Of a stretch of 64,000 nt of DNA, positions 21,084 through 34,378 are shown in pieces (position 1 is the first letter of the stretch; each line of letters opens with the position of its first letter). Source of the DNA: an uncultured Methylomonas sp. (GTDB taxonomy: Bacteria; Pseudomonadota; Gammaproteobacteria; Methylococcales; Methylomonadaceae); the NCBI GenBank assembly GCA_936941155.1, contig CAKZJE010000032.1, positions 124,001 to 188,000 on the forward strand. Reading direction: 5' to 3'. The notes beneath the pieces are model-generated. The model was given only the letters and a program-made list of their open reading frames with translations. It did no database searches and was not told the origin of the DNA. Made by a program: the position numbers and the translations under genes.

Positions 21084-21754
21084 TTATCCTGAAGGATGTT
21101 CACAAGCGATATAACGCAGATCAAAAGTCTGAAAAATGGGTCTTAAAAGGTGTGTCTTTTTCCATTCCATTAGGTGTAAGTGTAGGATTGGTAGGTGAAA
21201 GTGGTTCAGGAAAGTCTACCTTACTACGTTTGATAGGTGGAATTGAAGCTGTGAGCTCTGGAAGAATAGTGCGGCGTTGCCGTGTGTCCTGGCCTATGGG
21301 ATTTGCAGGTGCGTTACGTTCTTCTCTCACAGGGAGACAAAATGCCCGCTTTATTTTTAGAATACAAGGGCATACAGAGGATATAGAAGAGCGTTTGACG
21401 TATCTTCAGGATTTTTCAGAGTTAGGAGCTGATTTTGACAAGCCTTTAAAAAGCTACACTGCTGAAATGAAAGGTAAAATTCTTTTTAGTTTATTTATAG
21501 CGTCTGATTTTGATGTGTATCTTTCAGATGTGGGGATGTTGATTGGAGCAAAGAGGGATCTTGCGTTTAAAACAAAAGCAATTAAAACATTTAAAACACT
21601 AACTGAGCAATCAGGGGTGATTATGACAGCACCTAATGAGAGAATTCTAAAGCAGTTTTGTAGTGCTGGTATTTGGCTACATGAAGGACAAGCACACTGG
21701 TTTGATAATATTGACGATGCTTTGAAACATCACAAGGAAAGTTCTACTGTATGA
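21080..21754 (+). CDS. kpsT: KpsT-like ABC ATPase with degenerate Walker B
   Basis: A 224-residue ABC ATPase with intact Walker A GESGSGKST (39-47). The KpsT-like signature is divergent (SYTAEMKGKI around 125-134). At the Walker B position the sequence reads DFDVYLSDVGM, so the catalytic glutamate expected after D150 is replaced by valine. The D-loop aspartate of the family (SVGD) reads LIGA. The switch histidine region reads MTAPNE, with no histidine. ATP binding is likely, but fast hydrolysis by the usual mechanism is doubtful. Either it works with altered chemistry or the exporter is a slow or regulatory version. The gene overlaps both neighbours and is otherwise full-length and undamaged. 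Confidence 0.8.
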   Translation: MIILKDVHKRYNADQKSEKWVLKGVSFSIPLGVSVGLVGESGSGKSTLLRLIGGIEAVSSGRIVRRCRVSWPMGFAGALRSSLTGRQNARFIFRIQGHTEDIEERLTYLQDFSELGADFDKPLKSYTAEMKGKILFSLFIASDFDVYLSDVGMLIGAKRDLAFKTKAIKTFKTLTEQSGVIMTAPNERILKQFCSAGIWLHEGQAHWFDNIDDALKHHKESSTV

Positions 21755-23562
21755 ATAATTATCAAAGAAGGCTCGTTTTAAAGTCTAAAAACTCGATGCA
21801 ATTCTGGCAGAAAACTATTTTTATCTGCTTTTTTCTGGTGGTCGTGAGTCATGCAGCTTTTGCAGCCTCAGCAACCAGTGCTGGGGCAGGACAGGTGGCT
21901 GCTAGTGGGCAAACCAATAGTACAGCAGTATTGCCGCCTATTAATGGGACTCAGTCATTAACAACAGGTCGTGCACTGACAACTCAGCAATCGCCAGTTC
22001 AATCACAAACGGTTACTGCGCCAACGACAGTGATTAGCTCGCAGCCACCGCGCAAGTTTTATTACTCTGCCAACTTAAAAAGTGATGTATTTGGGATGTC
22101 GCTTTTTACAGGTAGCTTTGCTCAGCAAGGCGTTGTCCAGTTTAATCCAGACTATTTAGTTACCGTTGGCGATCAAATTCAAGTTCGCTTATGGGGAGGC
22201 TATATTTTTGATAGCTTACTTAATGTAGATCCCAAAGGTAATATATTTTTACCACAAGTCGGGCCTGTCAAAGTATTAGGCGTACACAATCAAGACTTAC
22301 AGCATATTGTAGAAAACGCAGTGCGAGGCGTGTTTCGAGCCAATGTGTTTAGTTATGCCAGCCTTGCAAGTGCGCATCCTGTGCGAATTTTTGTCGGTGG
22401 TTTTGTAAACCGTCCCGGGCTGTACAATGGAACAAGTATGGATAGCTTGTTACATTATCTAGATCAAGCAGGTGGTATAGACCCTGAGCGTGGTAGTTTT
22501 CTGAATGTGAAAGTTAAGCGAGGTCAACAGACACGCGTTACACTTAATCTTTACGATTTTCTGTTGCAAGGACGAATTCCTTTAATTCAATTAGCTGACG
22601 GAGATGTTATCTTTATTTCTCCACGTCAAAACATTGTGAAAGTGTTGGGGGAAGCTAAAACAACCAAGCGTTTTGAGTTTCAGGGGAATGCACTGACAGT
22701 TGCGCAATTATCTTCTTTAGCTAAACCTTTTTCTCGCACCACTCATGTGCGGATAACACGCAATTCAGGCGTAATTAAAAATATTGATTATTATGCGTTA
22801 GGCGATGCGAATGAGGTTGTTATTCATAACGGTGATACGGTTGAGTTTACGACCGATAAAAAACCGGGCACAATTAGTGTGCGTGTCGAAGGTGAGCATT
22901 CAAGTGCTCAAGAATATGTGTTGCCTTATGGTGCTCGGATTGGTGAATTATTACAAAAAGTTAAATTTTCTGAGCGTTCTGATACTGCCAGTATCCAACT
23001 TTACCGTGAAAGTGTAAGAGAACGGCAAAAAATTAAATTAGCCGCCTCATTAAAAACCTTAGAAGCAAGTGTTTTAACTGCACGAAGTGGATCAAGCGAA
23101 GAATCTGCGATTAGAAAAGAAGAAGCGGCAAGAATTTTGCAGTGGGTAGAGCGAGCGAAAACAATTGAACCCACTGGGCAAGTGTTGATTGCTCAAGCCG
23201 ATAATCGAGATGGATTACTATTGGAAAATGGTGATATTATCAAGATTCCAGCCCGTGATGGATTAGTTTTAGTGGCGGGAGAGGTGCTTTTTCCAAATTC
23301 AATTGCCTATGATGAAGAGCTTAGCTTAGAAGATTACGTTAATCTTGCTGGTGGTTATACTCAAAATGCGGATGATTCAAGAATTCTTATTTTGCACCGT
23401 GATGGCAATGTTGAAGATGGCAGTGCAAACTCTGAATTACGCGCAGGTGACGGTATTATGGTGATGCCGCAAGTAGACGCAAAACTATTTCAAGTTAGTA
23501 AAGAGTTTATTCAAATTCTGTTTCAAATTGGCATTGCTGCTTCTGTGCTTTTATTGTTATAA
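21751..23562 (+). CDS. kpsD: Outer-membrane polysaccharide export protein, KpsD-like, paralogue 1
   Basis: A 603-residue protein with a long signal sequence (hydrophobic core about residues 28-42, ending AFA). A Ser/Thr/Gln-rich linker follows, then the polysaccharide export domain (TVGDQIQVRLWGGY, VDPKGNIFLPQVGPVKV) and SLBB-type repeats (IFVGGFVNRPGLYNGTSMD, VLVAGEVLFPNSIAYDEEL). It ends in a hydrophobic segment (IGIAASVLLLL) that the second paralogue lacks. OPX proteins of this kind carry capsule polymer through the periplasm and outer membrane. It overlaps the ATPase gene (ATGA). An alternative start at Met16 (21796) would shorten the signal's n-region. Confidence 0.85.
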   Translation: MNNYQRRLVLKSKNSMQFWQKTIFICFFLVVVSHAAFAASATSAGAGQVAASGQTNSTAVLPPINGTQSLTTGRALTTQQSPVQSQTVTAPTTVISSQPPRKFYYSANLKSDVFGMSLFTGSFAQQGVVQFNPDYLVTVGDQIQVRLWGGYIFDSLLNVDPKGNIFLPQVGPVKVLGVHNQDLQHIVENAVRGVFRANVFSYASLASAHPVRIFVGGFVNRPGLYNGTSMDSLLHYLDQAGGIDPERGSFLNVKVKRGQQTRVTLNLYDFLLQGRIPLIQLADGDVIFISPRQNIVKVLGEAKTTKRFEFQGNALTVAQLSSLAKPFSRTTHVRITRNSGVIKNIDYYALGDANEVVIHNGDTVEFTTDKKPGTISVRVEGEHSSAQEYVLPYGARIGELLQKVKFSERSDTASIQLYRESVRERQKIKLAASLKTLEASVLTARSGSSEESAIRKEEAARILQWVERAKTIEPTGQVLIAQADNRDGLLLENGDIIKIPARDGLVLVAGEVLFPNSIAYDEELSLEDYVNLAGGYTQNADDSRILILHRDGNVEDGSANSELRAGDGIMVMPQVDAKLFQVSKEFIQILFQIGIAASVLLLL

Positions 23563-24792: not shown

Positions 24793-26535
24793 ATGCGCTA
24801 TTTGATAACAACGATTTTTATTTGTTTAGCCAATAGCAGCATTGCACAACCTACCAATGGCTCTTTAGCATCCCCAAACAATTCAACTGGCATAAATGCT
24901 ATTTCTGGAGGCGCGGCGCAAAACACAATGGCAATGCCTGCTGCTCCAGTTAGTTCATCAGCATCTGCGCCAGACCAACCTGTTCAGTCTTTTGATTATT
25001 CACTTAATCTTAAAAGTGATGTGTTTGGTGCGCAGCTTTTTACAGGCAACTTTGCACAGCAAGGCACGATGCAATTTAATCCTGATTATATGGTTGAAAT
25101 AGGCGATCAAATACAGGTTCAGCTGTGGGGAGGGTATACTTTTGATAGTGTCTTGAGTGTAGATCCGCAAGGAAATTTGTTTTTGCCGCAAATAGGTCCA
25201 CTTAAAGTATTAGGGGTTCGCAATCAAGATTTACAAACGGTAATAGATGCAGCAGTGAAAAAGGTATTTCGAGCTAACGTTTATAGTTATGCCAGTCTTG
25301 CAGCAGCTCAGCCTGTACGGATTTTTGTAGGCGGTTTTGTAAATCGTCCTGGACTGTACAATGGCACTAGTATGGATAGTTTATTGTACTATTTGGATCA
25401 AGCAGGCGGTATAGACACGGAACGAGGCACTTTTCTGAATGTACAAGTGAACAGAGGAGAGCAAGTTCGGGCGAATGTTAATCTTTATGATTTTTTATTC
25501 AATGGGCAAATTCCATTAGTGCAGTTGATGGATGGAGATGTGATTTTTGTTCCCTCTAAGCAAAACTCTATTAAAGTCACAGGATTAGTAGAAAATGCGA
25601 AAATTTTTGAGTTTACAGATAAAATTCTTTCGGTTAAGGCATTATCAGAGTTAGCAAGACCCCAAGCGATAGCAACTCACATCCGAGTTACGCGCAACAA
25701 AGGCGTTATCAAAAATATCGAATATTATCCTTTAACAGATGCGAATAACATACAAATCGGCAGCGGTGATGAAGTTGAGTTTACCGCAGATAAAAAGCCT
25801 GGCACTATTACTGTCCGCATAGAGGGTGAGCATCAAAGTCAGCAAGAATATGTTATGCCTTATGGCTCTCATTTTGGGGATTTGATTCGGCAAATAAAAT
25901 TTACTGACAGGTCTGATACAGATAACGTACAACTTTTTAGGCAGAGTGTGCGTGAGCGGCAAAAAGAAATGTTAAAAACTTCCCTCAATACTCTGGAGGC
26001 GAGTGTTCTGACAGTTCGTAGTGAAACGCCCGAAGAAGCGATGCTACGAAAAGATGAAGCAGATATTATTATGCAATGGGTGCAGCGTGCCAAAACGATT
26101 GAACCTAATGGTCAAGTGGTGATTGCACAAACCACTAATCGTGATGAATTATTATTGGAAGATGGCGATCTTATTAATGTGCCTAAACATGATGGCTTAA
26201 TTCTAGTGAGTGGCGAAGTATCATTGCCTAATGCGATTGCCTATAACGAAAGTTTAGATATTGACGATTATATTAATAAAGCGGGCGGATATACGCAAAA
26301 CTCAAGTAGTGCACGGATTGTGATTGCACATCAAGATGGTAGTTTTGATGATGGTTCAAAATCCGCTTTGCGAGCTGGCGATGAGATTTTAGTTTTGCCC
26401 GGAATTCAGGTGAAAAGTCGGCAAATGTTGTTAGATATTAGTCAATCTATCTATCAAATTGCTATTTCAACAAGAATGTTGACAGGTACAAAAAGCAACA
26501 GCTCAACTAGCAAATCCAGCAGTACTTTGTTTTAA
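24793..26535 (+). CDS. Outer-membrane polysaccharide export protein, KpsD-like, paralogue 2
   Basis: This 580-residue protein has a cleavable signal (MRYLITTIFICLANSSIAQ) and the same domain order as the first paralogue. They are nearly identical over many stretches (for example DQIQV-LWGGY, FVNRPGLYNGTSMDSLL, YLDQAGGID, QEYV-PYG). The main differences are the Ser/Asn-rich linker after the signal and a serine/threonine-rich C-terminus without the terminal hydrophobic segment. AAGGA precedes the ATG. The similarity and placement flanking kpsE point to duplication followed by divergence, and both copies keep open frames. The two may form mixed or alternative outer-membrane exits. Confidence 0.85.
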   Translation: MRYLITTIFICLANSSIAQPTNGSLASPNNSTGINAISGGAAQNTMAMPAAPVSSSASAPDQPVQSFDYSLNLKSDVFGAQLFTGNFAQQGTMQFNPDYMVEIGDQIQVQLWGGYTFDSVLSVDPQGNLFLPQIGPLKVLGVRNQDLQTVIDAAVKKVFRANVYSYASLAAAQPVRIFVGGFVNRPGLYNGTSMDSLLYYLDQAGGIDTERGTFLNVQVNRGEQVRANVNLYDFLFNGQIPLVQLMDGDVIFVPSKQNSIKVTGLVENAKIFEFTDKILSVKALSELARPQAIATHIRVTRNKGVIKNIEYYPLTDANNIQIGSGDEVEFTADKKPGTITVRIEGEHQSQQEYVMPYGSHFGDLIRQIKFTDRSDTDNVQLFRQSVRERQKEMLKTSLNTLEASVLTVRSETPEEAMLRKDEADIIMQWVQRAKTIEPNGQVVIAQTTNRDELLLEDGDLINVPKHDGLILVSGEVSLPNAIAYNESLDIDDYINKAGGYTQNSSSARIVIAHQDGSFDDGSKSALRAGDEILVLPGIQVKSRQMLLDISQSIYQIAISTRMLTGTKSNSSTSKSSSTLF

Positions 26536-26827
26536 CGTTTAACGTTTAACTTTAAACTATAGCAATCATAAATATTAAGGCTTAATTTTTTAGATATTAA
26601 GAATTTGAACTGATCAGATTGAGCATTTTCGTAAGTATTTAAAGAAAGCCCTACGAATGTTATAAAAAAATCAAACGTTTGATTATGAAAAAACTTAGTT
26701 GGAGAATGGCACTTTGACTGCAATTGTCAAATTGCAATTTCAGGCACTTTCAGCTGTTAAAGCGGGCTTTGCTGTGGAATTATGCTGATTTACAACTATA
26801 CTAATTAGCTTAAATGGAGATCATAAT
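26536..26827. other. Gene-free stretch before the HicB-HicA fusion
   Basis: About 290 AT-rich bases. After the export operon there is an imperfect tandem GTTTAAC repeat (26536-26553). The last 130 bases contain TTTGACTGCAATTGTCAAA-like inverted sequence (around 26713-26731) that could be an autoregulatory operator of the downstream gene. No convincing ORF is present. Confidence 0.4.
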
Positions 26828-27247
26828 ATGCAAAATAACTACTATAAGATTAGTATCTTTGTAAAAGAAGAAGAGGGCGTTTATTACGCTTATTGTCCTG
26901 AATTAGCTGGATGCCACAGTCAAGGTGACAGTTATAAAGAAGTGAAAGAGAATATTCAAGAGGCGGTAGATTTGTATTTAGAAACGTTTACCGAACATGA
27001 GGCTATGGAATGTTTAGGAAAAACTCCAAGCGAGGAAGCCTCGAATTCTAATTTTGATATACAACTAAGACTTAATTCTGCACAGGCAGAAAAATTGCTA
27101 TTGAACGCAGGATTTTCATTAGCAAGCAGCAAGGATAAACACAGAATCTATTTGAAAAAAAATCAACGCTTTATTTTACCCTTGCTTCCCGCAAAAAACT
27201 TATCCCAAAAAATGGCGAAAGAAATTTTAGATTTAGTGGGAGTGTGA
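26828..27247 (+). CDS. Single-chain HicB-HicA toxin-antitoxin fusion
   Basis: A 139-residue protein made of two halves of the HicAB module in one chain. Residues 4-54 are HicB-like (YKISIFVKEEEGVYYAYCPE, then GCHSQGDSYKEVKENIQEAV), the RNase-H-like antitoxin fold without the usual C-terminal DNA-binding part. Residues 80-139 are HicA-like (EKLLLNAGFSLASSKDKHRI, then FILPLLPAKNLSQKMAKEIL), the dsRBD-like mRNA-interferase fold with its conserved histidine, H105, retained. About 25 charged residues link them. GGAGA 7-8 bases before the ATG gives a good start. Normal hicA and hicB are separate genes. Fusion could hold the toxin permanently inhibited, or it may be released by cleavage. Confidence 0.72.
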   Translation: MQNNYYKISIFVKEEEGVYYAYCPELAGCHSQGDSYKEVKENIQEAVDLYLETFTEHEAMECLGKTPSEEASNSNFDIQLRLNSAQAEKLLLNAGFSLASSKDKHRIYLKKNQRFILPLLPAKNLSQKMAKEILDLVGV

Positions 27248-27252
27248 TGACG

Positions 27253-27591
27253 TTATGAACGATCCATCCCTAAGAATTTGCCAACAAACTCAAACCATTT
27301 ACTAAATCCAATTGTAGTTAAGACAAAACCTACCATTGATAATCCTTCTTCAAAAATAGTTTCAAATAAATCAACTCCCATAGCATCGTAATCAATAATT
27401 TCATCGCTCCAATCTAAAAGCATAGCGACTTCAATACAGATAAAACCGAATATAATTAAGTTCCAACTGCCGCCAGCAAGTTCTGGGTATTTTTTTCCAC
27501 AACGCCAAAGTACAAAAACTAAAGCCAAAACAAGCAGGGCTTTGATTCCTTCGATAATAATATCTGTGTGGTTGATGTGTTCTACAAACAT
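27253..27591 (-). CDS. Small membrane protein resembling an orphan sensory input region
   Basis: A 112-residue protein with three hydrophobic segments (about 12-26, 40-58, 85-102) and acidic loops (LLDWSDEIIDYD). The pattern with SWNLIIFGFICIEVAMLLDW and VGFVLTTIGFSKWFEFV is like the membrane input region that precedes GGDEF or kinase domains in many gammaproteobacteria, but no output domain follows. AAGGTG before the ATG supports it as a real, separately translated gene. It converges on the HicB-HicA gene (stop codons 5 bases apart). It may be a stand-alone membrane partner or the leftover of a larger sensor. Confidence 0.5.
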   Translation of the reverse strand: MFVEHINHTDIIIEGIKALLVLALVFVLWRCGKKYPELAGGSWNLIIFGFICIEVAMLLDWSDEIIDYDAMGVDLFETIFEEGLSMVGFVLTTIGFSKWFEFVGKFLGMDRS

Positions 27592-27649: not shown

Positions 27650-28099
27650 CTAATATTTTTTGTTGACTAGGAAAACACAAGCAGAAGCTTTTTGGGCACG
27701 GCACTGTACTTCTGTAACGATAACTGGTTGACTAGGACTTATTAAGCCACAGATAAGACCACTCAAAAAGTCACACTGAGCAGTGCTGGAAGTTTCTTTA
27801 ATGTGTATACAAAAAGGGCAAATAGAAACATGTAATTCATTTTCTTTTATTTTTGCCATTGTGAAAGGTGAAATAGTAGGCAAAACAATTTTCTTTAATG
27901 CTTGCCCAACAGAATCATCACCTTTCAATGATTTATATTTGCTGTGAAAAATTTTTCTACCTACCGCTTCGCCCATATCGTACACAATCAAGCGTTTATA
28001 CTCGTTATCGTCTAGGCTATTGGTAAATTCTTTTAAACTTCCCATAATATCTGGGTGTTTTCGGGCAATTACATCAGTAATAGAGAGTAGTGTATTCAT
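27650..28099 (-). CDS. V4R-domain-like protein
   Basis: A 149-residue soluble protein. The C-terminal half has the pattern of V4R (4-vinyl reductase) small-molecule-binding domains: ICPFCIHIKE, CDFLSGLICGLIS, then VTEVQCRAQKASACVF with the conserved cysteines, followed by strand and end. V4R domains bind hydrocarbons or metals and serve as sensors or as accessory parts of tetrapyrrole or methyl-transfer enzymes. Here the domain is alone. It lies between the small membrane gene and the Pycsar-like gene on the same strand. No ribosome-binding site stands out. Confidence 0.6.
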   Translation of the reverse strand: MNTLLSITDVIARKHPDIMGSLKEFTNSLDDNEYKRLIVYDMGEAVGRKIFHSKYKSLKGDDSVGQALKKIVLPTISPFTMAKIKENELHVSICPFCIHIKETSSTAQCDFLSGLICGLISPSQPVIVTEVQCRAQKASACVFLVNKKY

Positions 28100-28152: not shown

Positions 28153-30015
28153 TTAATGTTTAGCGCAGCCATTTTTAATATTCAATTGATCGTATTTGAG
28201 GATAATATAACGAGCAGCTGTTGATTCGCCTACTAATACCCCATCAGTAATCATTACAACTCGTGGTTGTCCATGCCACAACATAGGAGCCATGCCTTCG
28301 GTTTCTTCAAATCCTGTTAAACCTGTGACAGTAACAGGTTGTACAGCATCTGTATCACCGCACCAAAGCCATAACTTAAAGTTTACGTTATCACTTTTTC
28401 CTACAGGCCCACTCATAATTAAATAGCCATTTAAAAGTGGAAAGTAATTAATACTACGAACGCCATTACCACCTAAATCTAGCAAAGACACTGTTTCAGA
28501 AACTTGCGGCGTGGCATTTGCTGTTGTGAAAAGTTCTTTAGGATTATTAATGCTTACAATTACCGTTTTATTATCAACCAAAGGAGATCGTAATCCAAAT
28601 AACAACTTATCTTGAGATGAGTTAAGGCTTAGACCTTCAATATTAAATCCATCATTAGACTTACTGTCAGGATTTGCGATGGCTTTTGCTAAAAAAGGAT
28701 GTTGTTTAGCAATACTTTCTTCTAGGTTATTAATCACACTAGGCTCAAGAATTTGATTGCCTTCCATTTTAAAGCGCAGCAGTTTTTTTCTATCAGGTTT
28801 TTTCTCGCCTTTACTATTAAAGGCATGAGAAGTTACAGCGTAAATATAGCCTTGATTATCAATATCTATACCTTCTAAATCAGCTAGTTTTCTAAAGCCA
28901 CTACCAATACTATCTTTTTCAAACTGCTTATCAGGATAAAGTTCTTCAGCACTAAACTGGCCTGCGTCATTTAACGTTAAAAGATCCATAGGATGATCTT
29001 TTTCATCGTTGATAACTAAAAAGCGACCATCAGGAAGTTGCCCAATACCAGAAGACTCATGAACGCTATCTAAATCTTTAAATTCACTAAAAACAGGCAA
29101 TGATATTTTTTCTAAAGGTTTAGCTATAACTGTAACTGGCGTTGTTGCTTTTTCGCTAGTCGTTACCGCAGCAAGTACTGTTTGTTGAGCGGTGTTTTTT
29201 ATTGAAACTGGAATTGCGTCTGGTTCAGTACTTTTTTCTGCAAGCGAGATATGTTTTTGTTCAGGAGATTTTGCCGCAACAGATTTTACGGATTGTTCTA
29301 TTGCTTTTACTGAGTTAATTAGAAAATCCTTATTAAGCAACAGATAGATAATAATAAACAGAGAAATACTTACGCCTAAACCTGTAATAAAGACGGTATA
29401 CGCCCATTGCAGTAATTTGAATTTTCTAACTAATCCAACGCCTAAGCCATGTGTGTGTTGGCTAAGCAATTGATATGTCAACTTACGACTTCTCATGATT
29501 TTTTTCACTACTTTAAAATAGTCTGCGGATGATAGTGAGGCGAAATGTCCAAAAAACAAAGCATTTGCTCTGCCTTCTAAAAAATCCTCTTTAGTAAGCT
29601 CCGGTGCTCGGTAAACATTTGGACGTGCAGCTTGAATTGCAAAAAAAATAGCTGTTAAACTAGAAACCAGCAATACCCCAACAGGCAATAACAAATAAGG
29701 GTTAGATGTAATGTTTGTTCCGCTACTTGCAATGACAATGGACAAAATGATGCCATTTATGGAGATCATCATATTCGCTTTATTGTCGGCTAAGGTCGTT
29801 AATGCCAATTGAGTTGTATATGAACTTTTAAACATCGTCTCTACCCCCCGAATACTGCCACCTTTCACAGACTTTTTGTCTGATTTGCTTTTTTGCTTTT
29901 TCGTTTGTTCATGTTGGTTAGCATCTTCATCAGCAAGGTTGGCAGGAGAAGCAACATTCACTTTTTCAGAGCTAGGCGGAGTATTCTCTTCTTCCTCTGA
30001 TAACTGCTCATTCAT
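28153..30015 (-). CDS. Pycsar-effector-like (DUF5706) membrane domain fused to a DUF3616 beta-propeller
   Basis: This 620-residue protein has three parts. Residues 1-58 are polar and charged. Residues 59-235 match the PycTM/DUF5706 plan: TTLADNKANMMISINGIILSI, two closely spaced membrane helices, a loop, a cytoplasmic helical hairpin, and a further helix (AYTVFITGLGVSISLFIIIY). After a Lys/Ala/Thr-rich linker, residues 300-620 form a DUF3616-type beta-propeller (SGIGQLPDGRFLVINDE, DLEGIDIDNQGYIYAVTSHA, IEGLSLNSSQDKLLFGLRSP, LDLGGNGVRSI). If the family topology holds, the propeller is periplasmic. PycTM proteins are the membrane-damaging effectors of cyclic-pyrimidine anti-phage systems. No cyclase gene is visible nearby, so the role is open. 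Confidence 0.68.
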   Translation of the reverse strand: MNEQLSEEEENTPPSSEKVNVASPANLADEDANQHEQTKKQKSKSDKKSVKGGSIRGVETMFKSSYTTQLALTTLADNKANMMISINGIILSIVIASSGTNITSNPYLLLPVGVLLVSSLTAIFFAIQAARPNVYRAPELTKEDFLEGRANALFFGHFASLSSADYFKVVKKIMRSRKLTYQLLSQHTHGLGVGLVRKFKLLQWAYTVFITGLGVSISLFIIIYLLLNKDFLINSVKAIEQSVKSVAAKSPEQKHISLAEKSTEPDAIPVSIKNTAQQTVLAAVTTSEKATTPVTVIAKPLEKISLPVFSEFKDLDSVHESSGIGQLPDGRFLVINDEKDHPMDLLTLNDAGQFSAEELYPDKQFEKDSIGSGFRKLADLEGIDIDNQGYIYAVTSHAFNSKGEKKPDRKKLLRFKMEGNQILEPSVINNLEESIAKQHPFLAKAIANPDSKSNDGFNIEGLSLNSSQDKLLFGLRSPLVDNKTVIVSINNPKELFTTANATPQVSETVSLLDLGGNGVRSINYFPLLNGYLIMSGPVGKSDNVNFKLWLWCGDTDAVQPVTVTGLTGFEETEGMAPMLWHGQPRVVMITDGVLVGESTAARYIILKYDQLNIKNGCAKH

Positions 30016-32134: not shown

Positions 32135-34378
32135 TTATTCGGCACTAAAAGAGGCGGGTGGTTTAGATTCAAGGATTTTTAGTTGGGCTTTTGCTTCTGA
32201 ATTATCTTGCGCTGCGGCTTTTTTATACCATATTAAAGCTTCTGTGGTATCTGCTTCCACGCCATAACCATTTTCATACATAATGCCTAGCAAATATTGA
32301 GCTTTATCGTTGCCTTGTTCTGCGGCTTTTTGATACCACACAATAGCGGCTTGATAATCTTGAGTTACGCCTGTTCCGTAGTGATACATTACCCCTAAAC
32401 TGTATTGAGCATCAGCGTTTTCTTGCTCGGCGGCTCTTAAATACCACTCGACAGCTTGTTTATCATCTTGTTGCACGCCTTGACCTTTTTCATACAGTAC
32501 GCCTAATAAATATTGGGCATTTGTTTGATTTTGTTCAGCCGCTTTGCGATACCACTTTGTTGCTTCTTTGAGATTTTTTTCTGTGCCATAACCGCTTTGA
32601 TACATCATCCCTAAGTTAGTTTGTGCGAAAGCATTACCTTGTTCGGCGGCTTTTTTATACCACTTGAGTGTTTCAACATAATCTTGTTTGACACCATCAC
32701 CACTGCGATAGCATCCTCCTAGCAATAACTGTGCGACAGCGTAACCTTGTTCAGCGGTACGTTGCCAAAACGCAATGTTTTTTGGACACCATTGTTGATA
32801 AAAATCAGTGCTTGAACCTTTGGATTTTAACGCCGCGATGATGGACTTTTCTTGCTCAGCCAATTGTTTTTCATCTTCTAACTTTAGCGTCTCTGCTAAT
32901 TCAATTAATTTTTCCTCTGCCTTAGGTTTATCCGTACATTGCACACAAGTGCTTAAATAGGTTTGAAAGTCTTCCAGTGTTTGGGCTTTACTAAACAACA
33001 ACGCTTCTTGTTCATATTGTTTTTGTTGCGATAACAAGTTTTGTTGCTCTTTCTCAAGTTGTGAGATTCGCTCCAGTGCACGTTGCTGATTTTCACAGGT
33101 AATACAATTGCTTAAATAGTTTTTATAATCTGTTATGGATTGTGATTGTGAAAATAACAAATTATCTTGTTTGCGCTCTTGTGCTTGCTGCAAATCATAG
33201 CTTTGATAGGCGATATATCCGCCATAAACCAAGCTAATGACAGCACCTAAAGCGCACAGAAACATTAACAGACTGCGCATCAACGAAGTGGGTTTCACCA
33301 GTGGCTGACGCAGTTCAGGTTTATGGTTGAAATTGCTATGTACCGCTGTGCGAGCTGGCGTTATCGAGTCTACAAATTGTGTTGCATAAGAGGTTTGTGT
33401 CGCCCAAAGAGGAGAGAGCTCAGTCAATAGCTGCGTGGTACTTTTAGGGCGTAAATTTGCATTCAATTGCAAACAATGTACAGCGACCGTTTGCAAAATT
33501 TGCGCATTTTTATCTGTAGAGTTCAGCAGATTAAGTGATGCACCTTGGCGGCGTGCTTCTACCGGCGGCGGAGCTTGTCCATGTAAACAGAGGTAAATGA
33601 CAGCACCTAACGCATATAAATCGGTGCGATGATCGCAATAAGCACCGCTAAGTTGTTCTGGCGCGATAAAAGTACCTGTTCCTAACGTCGATGGTTTGAG
33701 TAATTCATCTCGCACACCTTCGCGAGCTAAACCAAAATCCATCAGCACAGGTTTATCTTGTGCAGAAAGAAAAATATTATTGGGGCTAATGTCGCGATGA
33801 TAAATGTCTTTCGCGTGCAGTTTTTGCAAGGTTTCTAGCAAAGGTTTTAGCCATAAACAAATTTGCTGGGCAGATAATTGTTTTTGTTCGCTTAAATAAT
33901 CAGCAAGACTAATACCGTTTAAGCGTTCCATGACTAAATAGGAAGTATTGTGCTGATTAATCAACGCTGTGTAATGCACTACGCCAGATTCAACCGATGG
34001 ATGGTCATAACAACTGCGTAATAATTCAGCTTCTCGAATAAAATGATTTTGCCAAATTGTCAGTTGTTCTTGCTGGCGTTTGGGTTTGACAGTTTTGCTA
34101 TCTAAACCGCGCTGTGCTAAGTCGCGTGGATAATATTCTTTGATAGCACTGCTGAGGAAATCTTTTTCACGGATGGCGGCATAAACAATAGCGAAACTGC
34201 CTTCGCCTAGCACTCTGCCGATGACATAACCTTTTTCCAAACGGGTAAATAATGGCAGGTGATGCGCAGCAGCGTAATCGGTTAAATACGCTTCTTTGTC
34301 AAATTGACAGGAGGCACACACCTTAGTGGAACTGAGCTGAAAGCAGTTAGGACAATGAGTTTTGAGTTGGTATTCCAT
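32135..34378 (-). CDS. Membrane Ser/Thr protein kinase with zinc ribbon and Sel1 repeats
   Basis: A 747-residue protein. Residues 9-25 hold two CxxC pairs (CPNC, CASC), a zinc ribbon. The kinase domain follows at about 50-320: glycine loop GEGSFAIVY, lysine in AIKEYYPRDLAQR, HRDISPNN catalytic loop, and DFGLA, so it should be active. A membrane helix lies at about 367-390. Outside it are a coiled coil and two copies of a (D/N)Y-x-x-YLSxCxxC unit. The C-terminal 200 residues comprise about six Sel1-type repeats (YKKAAEQGNAFAQTNLGMMY pattern). Kinase inside, repeats outside, fits a sensor of periplasmic proteins. The domain order is common in Thiotrichales-like bacteria. Confidence 0.88.
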   Translation of the reverse strand: MEYQLKTHCPNCFQLSSTKVCASCQFDKEAYLTDYAAAHHLPLFTRLEKGYVIGRVLGEGSFAIVYAAIREKDFLSSAIKEYYPRDLAQRGLDSKTVKPKRQQEQLTIWQNHFIREAELLRSCYDHPSVESGVVHYTALINQHNTSYLVMERLNGISLADYLSEQKQLSAQQICLWLKPLLETLQKLHAKDIYHRDISPNNIFLSAQDKPVLMDFGLAREGVRDELLKPSTLGTGTFIAPEQLSGAYCDHRTDLYALGAVIYLCLHGQAPPPVEARRQGASLNLLNSTDKNAQILQTVAVHCLQLNANLRPKSTTQLLTELSPLWATQTSYATQFVDSITPARTAVHSNFNHKPELRQPLVKPTSLMRSLLMFLCALGAVISLVYGGYIAYQSYDLQQAQERKQDNLLFSQSQSITDYKNYLSNCITCENQQRALERISQLEKEQQNLLSQQKQYEQEALLFSKAQTLEDFQTYLSTCVQCTDKPKAEEKLIELAETLKLEDEKQLAEQEKSIIAALKSKGSSTDFYQQWCPKNIAFWQRTAEQGYAVAQLLLGGCYRSGDGVKQDYVETLKWYKKAAEQGNAFAQTNLGMMYQSGYGTEKNLKEATKWYRKAAEQNQTNAQYLLGVLYEKGQGVQQDDKQAVEWYLRAAEQENADAQYSLGVMYHYGTGVTQDYQAAIVWYQKAAEQGNDKAQYLLGIMYENGYGVEADTTEALIWYKKAAAQDNSEAKAQLKILESKPPASFSAE

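What the first reader, a model, noticed from the sequence alone, without database searches (positions are those of the whole stretch)
26828..27247. HicB and HicA fused in one 139-residue chain
The antitoxin half comes first and lacks a DNA-binding domain; the toxin half keeps its histidine. Fusion of a toxin with its inhibitor in cis is rare and raises the question of how the toxin is ever freed: proteolysis in the charged linker, or loss of toxicity with a new RNA-binding role.
Basis: partly seen in the sequence, partly recalled or inferred. Interest (0 to 1): 0.6.

Follow-up and report, generated by a model that had tools for sequence, protein, structure and literature searches.

The report
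Fused HicB–HicA protein, toxin loop eroded
A bacterial antitoxin and its toxin have become joined into one small protein, a rare arrangement already described in 2024; here the toxin half has lost a residue needed for killing, and a sister species keeps only a broken copy, so it looks like a disarmed relic rather than a new kind of toxin switch.

Summary
One intact ORF (26828-27247, +, 139 aa) encodes a small HicB domain without a DNA-binding domain, then a HicA domain. It is not a sequencing join. A same-genus genome carries a decayed remnant of the same gene at the same place, sharing the linker. The closest intact relatives are two-gene "Class 2" hicBA operons across many phyla; none of 85 examined loci is fused. 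The fused architecture is published as "Class 12" HicBA (Gerdes 2024), so this is a new member of a known kind.

The toxin half keeps its histidine and is predicted to fold as HicA, but it has lost the glycine two residues before the histidine. That glycine is as essential as the histidine in B. pseudomallei HicA. It has also lost other family-invariant loop residues, and the glycine-to-aspartate change is shared by the sister remnant. Both halves sit on the longest branches of their trees.

Best reading: a detoxified fusion, disarmed before the species split and pseudogenised in the sister. The open frame in this genome hints at a retained non-toxic role, perhaps RNA binding or interaction with the genome's roughly 19 other HicA loci. 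A CapRel-like autoinhibited toxin is possible but less likely. Toxicity was not tested.

The parts
26828..27247 (+). fused hicB-hicA gene, 139 aa
   Evidence: single open frame; Pfam HicB and HicA matches; AlphaFold2 model pLDDT 87
26816..26819 (+). GGAG, ribosome-binding-site-like, 8 nt before the ATG
   Evidence: read from sequence
26843..27004 (+). HicB domain (aa 6-59), partial RNase-H-like fold, no DNA-binding domain
   Evidence: PF15919 E 1e-7; VIA-align Z 7.9 to TTHA0281, 7.6-7.8 to E. coli HicB
27014..27070 (+). linker and remnant of the HicB C-terminal strand (aa 63-81); aa 72-77 predicted disordered; junction where the HicB stop/HicA start overlap and the 'MPxxP' N-terminus of the two-gene relatives is missing
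   Evidence: alignments; pLDDT < 50 at 72-77
27083..27241 (+). HicA domain (Pfam match aa 86-138), abbba dsRBD-like fold
   Evidence: PF07927 E 8e-5; Z 8.9 to 6g26_F and 1whz
27134..27142 (+). D103-K104-H105: active-site turn, G->D and S->K beside the retained His
   Evidence: relatives are 100% G and 100% S here, 79 aligned (the locus filter used there required an intact motif, so see also the unfiltered list); 17 of 19 other HicA loci of this genome have G at -2 and all 19 have a G within three residues; G22C and H24A both abolish toxicity in B. pseudomallei HicA (PMC3969222)

Best explanation
This is a Class 12 hicBA fusion that arose from a two-gene Class 2 hicBA operon by loss of the overlapping stop/start at the junction. 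Its HicA half was disarmed before the split of two species of this genus, by G22->D and then further loss of active-site-loop residues. The protein still folds as HicB plus HicA, but the HicA half is most likely no longer a growth-arresting RNase, so nothing needs to be released. It persists as a non-toxic relic, possibly kept for a residual role such as RNA binding or interaction with other HicA/HicB proteins, and has decayed to a pseudogene in the sister species. Shown here: the fusion, its Class 2 relationship, the residue losses, the predicted fold and the sister remnant. Inferred: non-toxicity, the order of events and any residual role.
For: Relatives: all 85 related loci resolved have hicB and hicA in separate frames, none fused. 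Residues: the HicA half lost 13 of 30 positions conserved in at least 80% of 79 relatives, including R100S, G103D, S104K, H120L, H126S and P127Q, where relatives are 97-100% identical. G22C and H24A both abolish toxicity in B. pseudomallei HicA (PMC3969222). In this genome 19 of 19 other HicA loci keep a Gly within three residues before the His (17 at -2); the fused one has none. Branches: the fused protein has the longest terminal branch in both trees, 1.18 against a median of 0.10 for HicB and 1.52 against 0.14 for HicA, which suggests relaxed constraint on both halves. Sister species: G002 has a syntenic remnant with stop codons, the same linker (KASNAEFDI / EASNSNFDI) and the same SKD, without the His; DNA alignment score 132 against a maximum of 83 in 1000 shuffles.
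Against: The 139-codon frame is intact although the two genomes are about 1.08 substitutions per fourfold site apart. A neutral simulation gives a stop-free frame in under 1% of runs at 0.2 or more substitutions per site, so a wholly functionless relic is unlikely unless constraint ended recently. The HicA half keeps a relative-like net charge (+6, median +6) and H105-R-I-Y. G22 was tested only in one distant HicA and only as Cys, and E. coli HicA carries its Gly one residue further from the His (from memory), so the turn tolerates some variation.
Confidence: 0.6

Rival explanations
1. Active but autoinhibited single-chain toxin. The HicB half caps the HicA active site in cis, and a trigger (phage protein or proteolysis of the disordered linker) releases RNase activity, like CapRel-SJ46.
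For: Both domains are predicted well folded and joined by a flexible linker, disordered at aa 72-77; the His and a basic surface charge are kept; the frame is intact against neutral expectation. Gerdes 2024 proposes this mode for fused HicABs by analogy with CapRel (PMC10865869).
Against: The required G22 is Asp and S23, H120 and the LHP motif are gone; the sister species has lost the gene without keeping a separate hicBA there; neighbours are polysaccharide-export genes and a membrane/V4R gene pair, not a recognisable defence island; no PADLOC match.
Confidence: 0.15
2. Repurposed non-toxic RNA-binding or anti-addiction protein: selection keeps the fused chain because its HicA half binds RNA or HicBs, or its HicB half neutralises HicA toxins from the genome's other modules.
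For: Stop-free frame over about 0.5 neutral substitutions per site per lineage; fold and basic charge retained; about 19 other HicA loci in the same genome; fewer mismatches at codon position 2 than at 1 and 3 between gene and remnant (12/77 against 47/158).
Against: Long branches in both halves look like relaxation as much as adaptation; it is pseudogenised in the sister species; no close HicB or HicA paralogue in the genome (best HicB 40%).
Confidence: 0.2
3. Sequencing or assembly artefact joining two genes.
For: Draft assembly of 124 contigs; ten of the top relatives have single-base-type frameshifts in hicA, some of which may be errors.
Against: The junction lacks both the stop/start overlap and the HicA N-terminus, which no single-base error explains; the linker and the SKD motif recur in an independent genome.
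Confidence: 0.02

Closest known systems
Class 12 HicBA (Gerdes 2024, mBio, PMC10865869; example MBI3260764.1)
   Same: single gene; small HicB without DNA-binding domain first, HicA second; example domains at aa 12-60 and 74-127, here 6-59 and 86-138
Class 2 hicBA operons (e.g. Synechocystis PCC 6714 pSYLB D082_RS16710/16715; Helicobacter prophages)
   Same: same HicB and HicA subfamilies, gene order and sizes; up to 52% (HicB) and 45% (HicA) identity in the aligned domains
   Different: two genes with overlapping stop and start, in different frames in most; intact GSH turn and PFHxGxxLHPK loop
B. pseudomallei HicA/HicB (4c26, 6g26)
   Same: HicA fold (Z 8.9, 1.9 A over 58 aa) and catalytic His
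   Different: separate proteins, HicB with DNA-binding domain (prior knowledge), G22 present and required
CapRel-SJ46 fused toxin-antitoxin
   Same: toxin and antitoxin in one chain
   Different: unrelated domains, antitoxin part C-terminal, activity shown experimentally; known here only through PMC10865869

Membership tests
Class 12 HicBA | HicB and HicA domains in one open reading frame, HicB first | tested here: met
Class 12 HicBA | small HicB without DNA-binding domain | tested here: met
   Pfam finds only HicB and HicA families above noise
Class 12 HicBA | HicA domain with abbba dsRBD-like fold | tested here: met
   the model was informed by relatives' sequences, and the single-sequence model was poor
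Class 12 HicBA | clusters with other naturally fused HicBAs | not tested
HicA toxin (PF07927) | curated Pfam score cut-off | tested here: not met
   23.1 bits against 27; E 8e-5, and homology supported by alignment and fold
HicA toxin (PF07927) | catalytic histidine | tested here: met
   H105 aligned with the invariant His
HicA toxin (PF07927) | essential glycine of the b1-b2 turn (G22) | tested here: not met
   D103; requirement from PMC3969222
Type II toxin-antitoxin system | toxicity neutralised by the antitoxin | not testable with these tools
   needs expression assays
Anti-phage defence system | match to a known defence profile | tested here: not met
   no PADLOC match

The most novel reading that the evidence does not exclude
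A toxin-antitoxin pair turned, by fusion and loss of the catalytic turn, into a single-chain non-toxic protein that selection keeps in one species, for example to bind RNA or to neutralise the genome's other HicA toxins.
Probability: 0.2. Interest if true: 0.5.

Novelty: new member of a known kind. Interest (0 to 1): 0.27.

Why it matters
[quoted passage not shown] This case suggests that for some of them the question does not arise, because the toxin was disarmed. The surviving gene beside a sister pseudogene gives a datable example of how a toxin-antitoxin operon fuses and decays. It also shows that a retained catalytic histidine alone is not evidence of an active HicA.

Tried and rejected
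Searches with the fused protein alone in genome contigs and viral contigs found nothing; the alignment query found 233 relatives, of which 80 were kept. Phages and plasmids gave only two-gene pairs in the rows listed. Broader genome searches in class and phylum found no other long match without a stop. The single-sequence AlphaFold model was poor (pLDDT 54). The first relatives' alignments misplaced domain rows and were replaced by A5. Promoter scan: no sigma-70-like site upstream of the gene; no convincing operator, since inverted repeats at AT-rich spots are expected by chance. A separate HicA product from an internal start was considered: the only in-frame ATG ahead of the HicA domain, after the first, is M60 (27005), with GAGG only 2 nt before it, which is poor spacing. 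Faster decay of the HicA half alone was considered and not supported: both halves have terminal branches about 11 times the median. Orthologous loci in another genus of the family (L153, L155-L157) carry neighbouring genes but no hicBA.

Full report
WHAT IS THERE. The frame 26828-27247 (+) is a single intact ORF of 139 aa with a good ribosome-binding site. Pfam recognises a HicB-like antitoxin domain (aa 6-59, above cut-off) and a HicA toxin domain (aa 86-138, E 8e-5 but below the curated cut-off). NCBIfam and PADLOC give nothing relevant. AlphaFold2 without relatives was poor. With 55 relatives' rows it reached pLDDT 87, with two folded domains and a disordered stretch at 72-77. The HicA half aligns to solved HicA structures (Z 8.9, 1.9-2.0 A) and the HicB half to HicB structures (Z 7-8). 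The fold is thus supported, with the caveat that relatives' sequences shaped the model.

WHERE IT COMES FROM. The nearest relatives are two-gene hicBA operons with a small HicB and no DNA-binding domain, seen in other genomes of the same order, cyanobacterial and Campylobacter/Helicobacter plasmids and prophages and many phyla. In 85 loci examined none is fused. In most of these operons the HicB stop overlaps the HicA start in another frame; in ten of them a hicA frameshift puts it into hicB's frame behind the stop, which may be enriched by the ranking. In the fused gene the stop, the start and the 'MPxxP' beginning of HicA are missing and the linker is a few residues longer. One deletion across the overlap would do this; that step is inferred.

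A SISTER REMNANT. A second species of the genus (G002) carries orthologues of the two downstream genes (27253-27591 and 27650-28099, both -) at 66-67% protein identity. Beside them, at the place of the fused gene, lies a remnant with stop codons. The DNA alignment of gene and remnant scores 132, against at most 83 in 1000 dinucleotide shuffles. The remnant shares the linker (KASNAEFDI against EASNSNFDI) and SKD, but not the histidine. So the fusion is older than this species split, it is not an artefact, and by parsimony the G-to-D change beside the catalytic His was already present. Related loci in another genus of the family have the neighbouring genes but no hicBA.

IS THE TOXIN HALF ALIVE? 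In B. pseudomallei HicA, H24A and G22C both abolish toxicity while S23A, G14C and P41A do not (PMC3969222). The fused protein keeps the His (H105) but has D at the Gly position. All 79 aligned relatives have G there, and all 19 other HicA loci of this genome have a Gly within three residues before the His, 17 of them at the same position. One caution on the 79: the script kept only loci whose HicA shows a G-x-H-R-I motif, and the database patterns also touched this motif, so 100% is partly built in; the unfiltered list nevertheless shows KGSHRI in every locus whose HicA frame could be read that far, and the own-genome count does not depend on that filter. The fused protein has also lost R100, S104, H120, G122, H126 and P127, at positions 89-100% conserved. 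These losses cluster in the two loops that Butt et al. discuss as the likely substrate and antitoxin site. Net charge is unchanged. Both halves have the longest terminal branch in their trees, each about 11 times the median, so constraint relaxed on the whole chain, not on the toxin alone.

IS IT KEPT? The two genomes differ by about 1.08 substitutions per fourfold site in the flanking genes (49 sites, so a rough figure). A neutral simulation leaves the 139-codon frame stop-free in 0.9% of runs at 0.2 substitutions per site and 0 of 4000 at 0.5. So some constraint held in this lineage for part of that time, or ended recently. Mismatches between gene and remnant are fewer at codon position 2 (12/77 against 47/158), a weak sign in the same direction. 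This is the main argument against a pure relic.

MECHANISM. The best reading is a disarmed fusion: no release step is needed because the HicA half is probably not an active RNase. A CapRel-like autoinhibited toxin (proposed for fused HicABs in PMC10865869) remains possible if the turn tolerates Asp. A repurposed RNA-binding or anti-addiction role is possible and would explain the open frame.

KNOWN OR NEW. Gerdes 2024 defined Class 12 as a hicBA gene encoding HicA fused to a small HicB and argued that some are under selection. This protein meets the architectural criteria. It is a new member of that class; the eroded active-site turn and the sister pseudogene are the added information.

Noticed in passing
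28153-30015 (-): Protein combining a Pycsar-effector transmembrane domain (PycTM, E 8e-21) with DUF3616/phytase-like C-terminal part; a similar frame lies in the same place in orthologous loci of another genus of the family (L153, L155-L157).
   Followed up: partly
27650-28099 (-) and 27253-27591 (-): A V4R-domain protein (below Pfam cut-off) and a small membrane protein; orthologues of both lie together in the same-genus genome G002 (L151).
   Followed up: partly
21751-23562 and 24793-26535 (+): Two tandem, similar polysaccharide-export (Poly_export/SLBB) genes flanking a chain-length-determinant-like gene.
   Followed up: no
L060-L063, L065-L068, L070, L073: Ten Class 2 hicBA relatives have hicA shifted by an indel near its start into hicB's frame behind the hicB stop, with hicB intact; at least two are from isolates (Microseira wollei, Helicobacter labacensis). 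Ranking by single-frame matches enriches for this; errors not excluded.
   Followed up: partly
L047 and L048 (G000 contig C45, 33767 and 36110): Two nearly identical hicAB modules 2.3 kb apart in the same genome, among about 20 HicA loci in all.
   Followed up: no
32135-34378 (-): Serine/threonine-kinase-like protein with C-terminal Sel1-like repeats.
   Followed up: no
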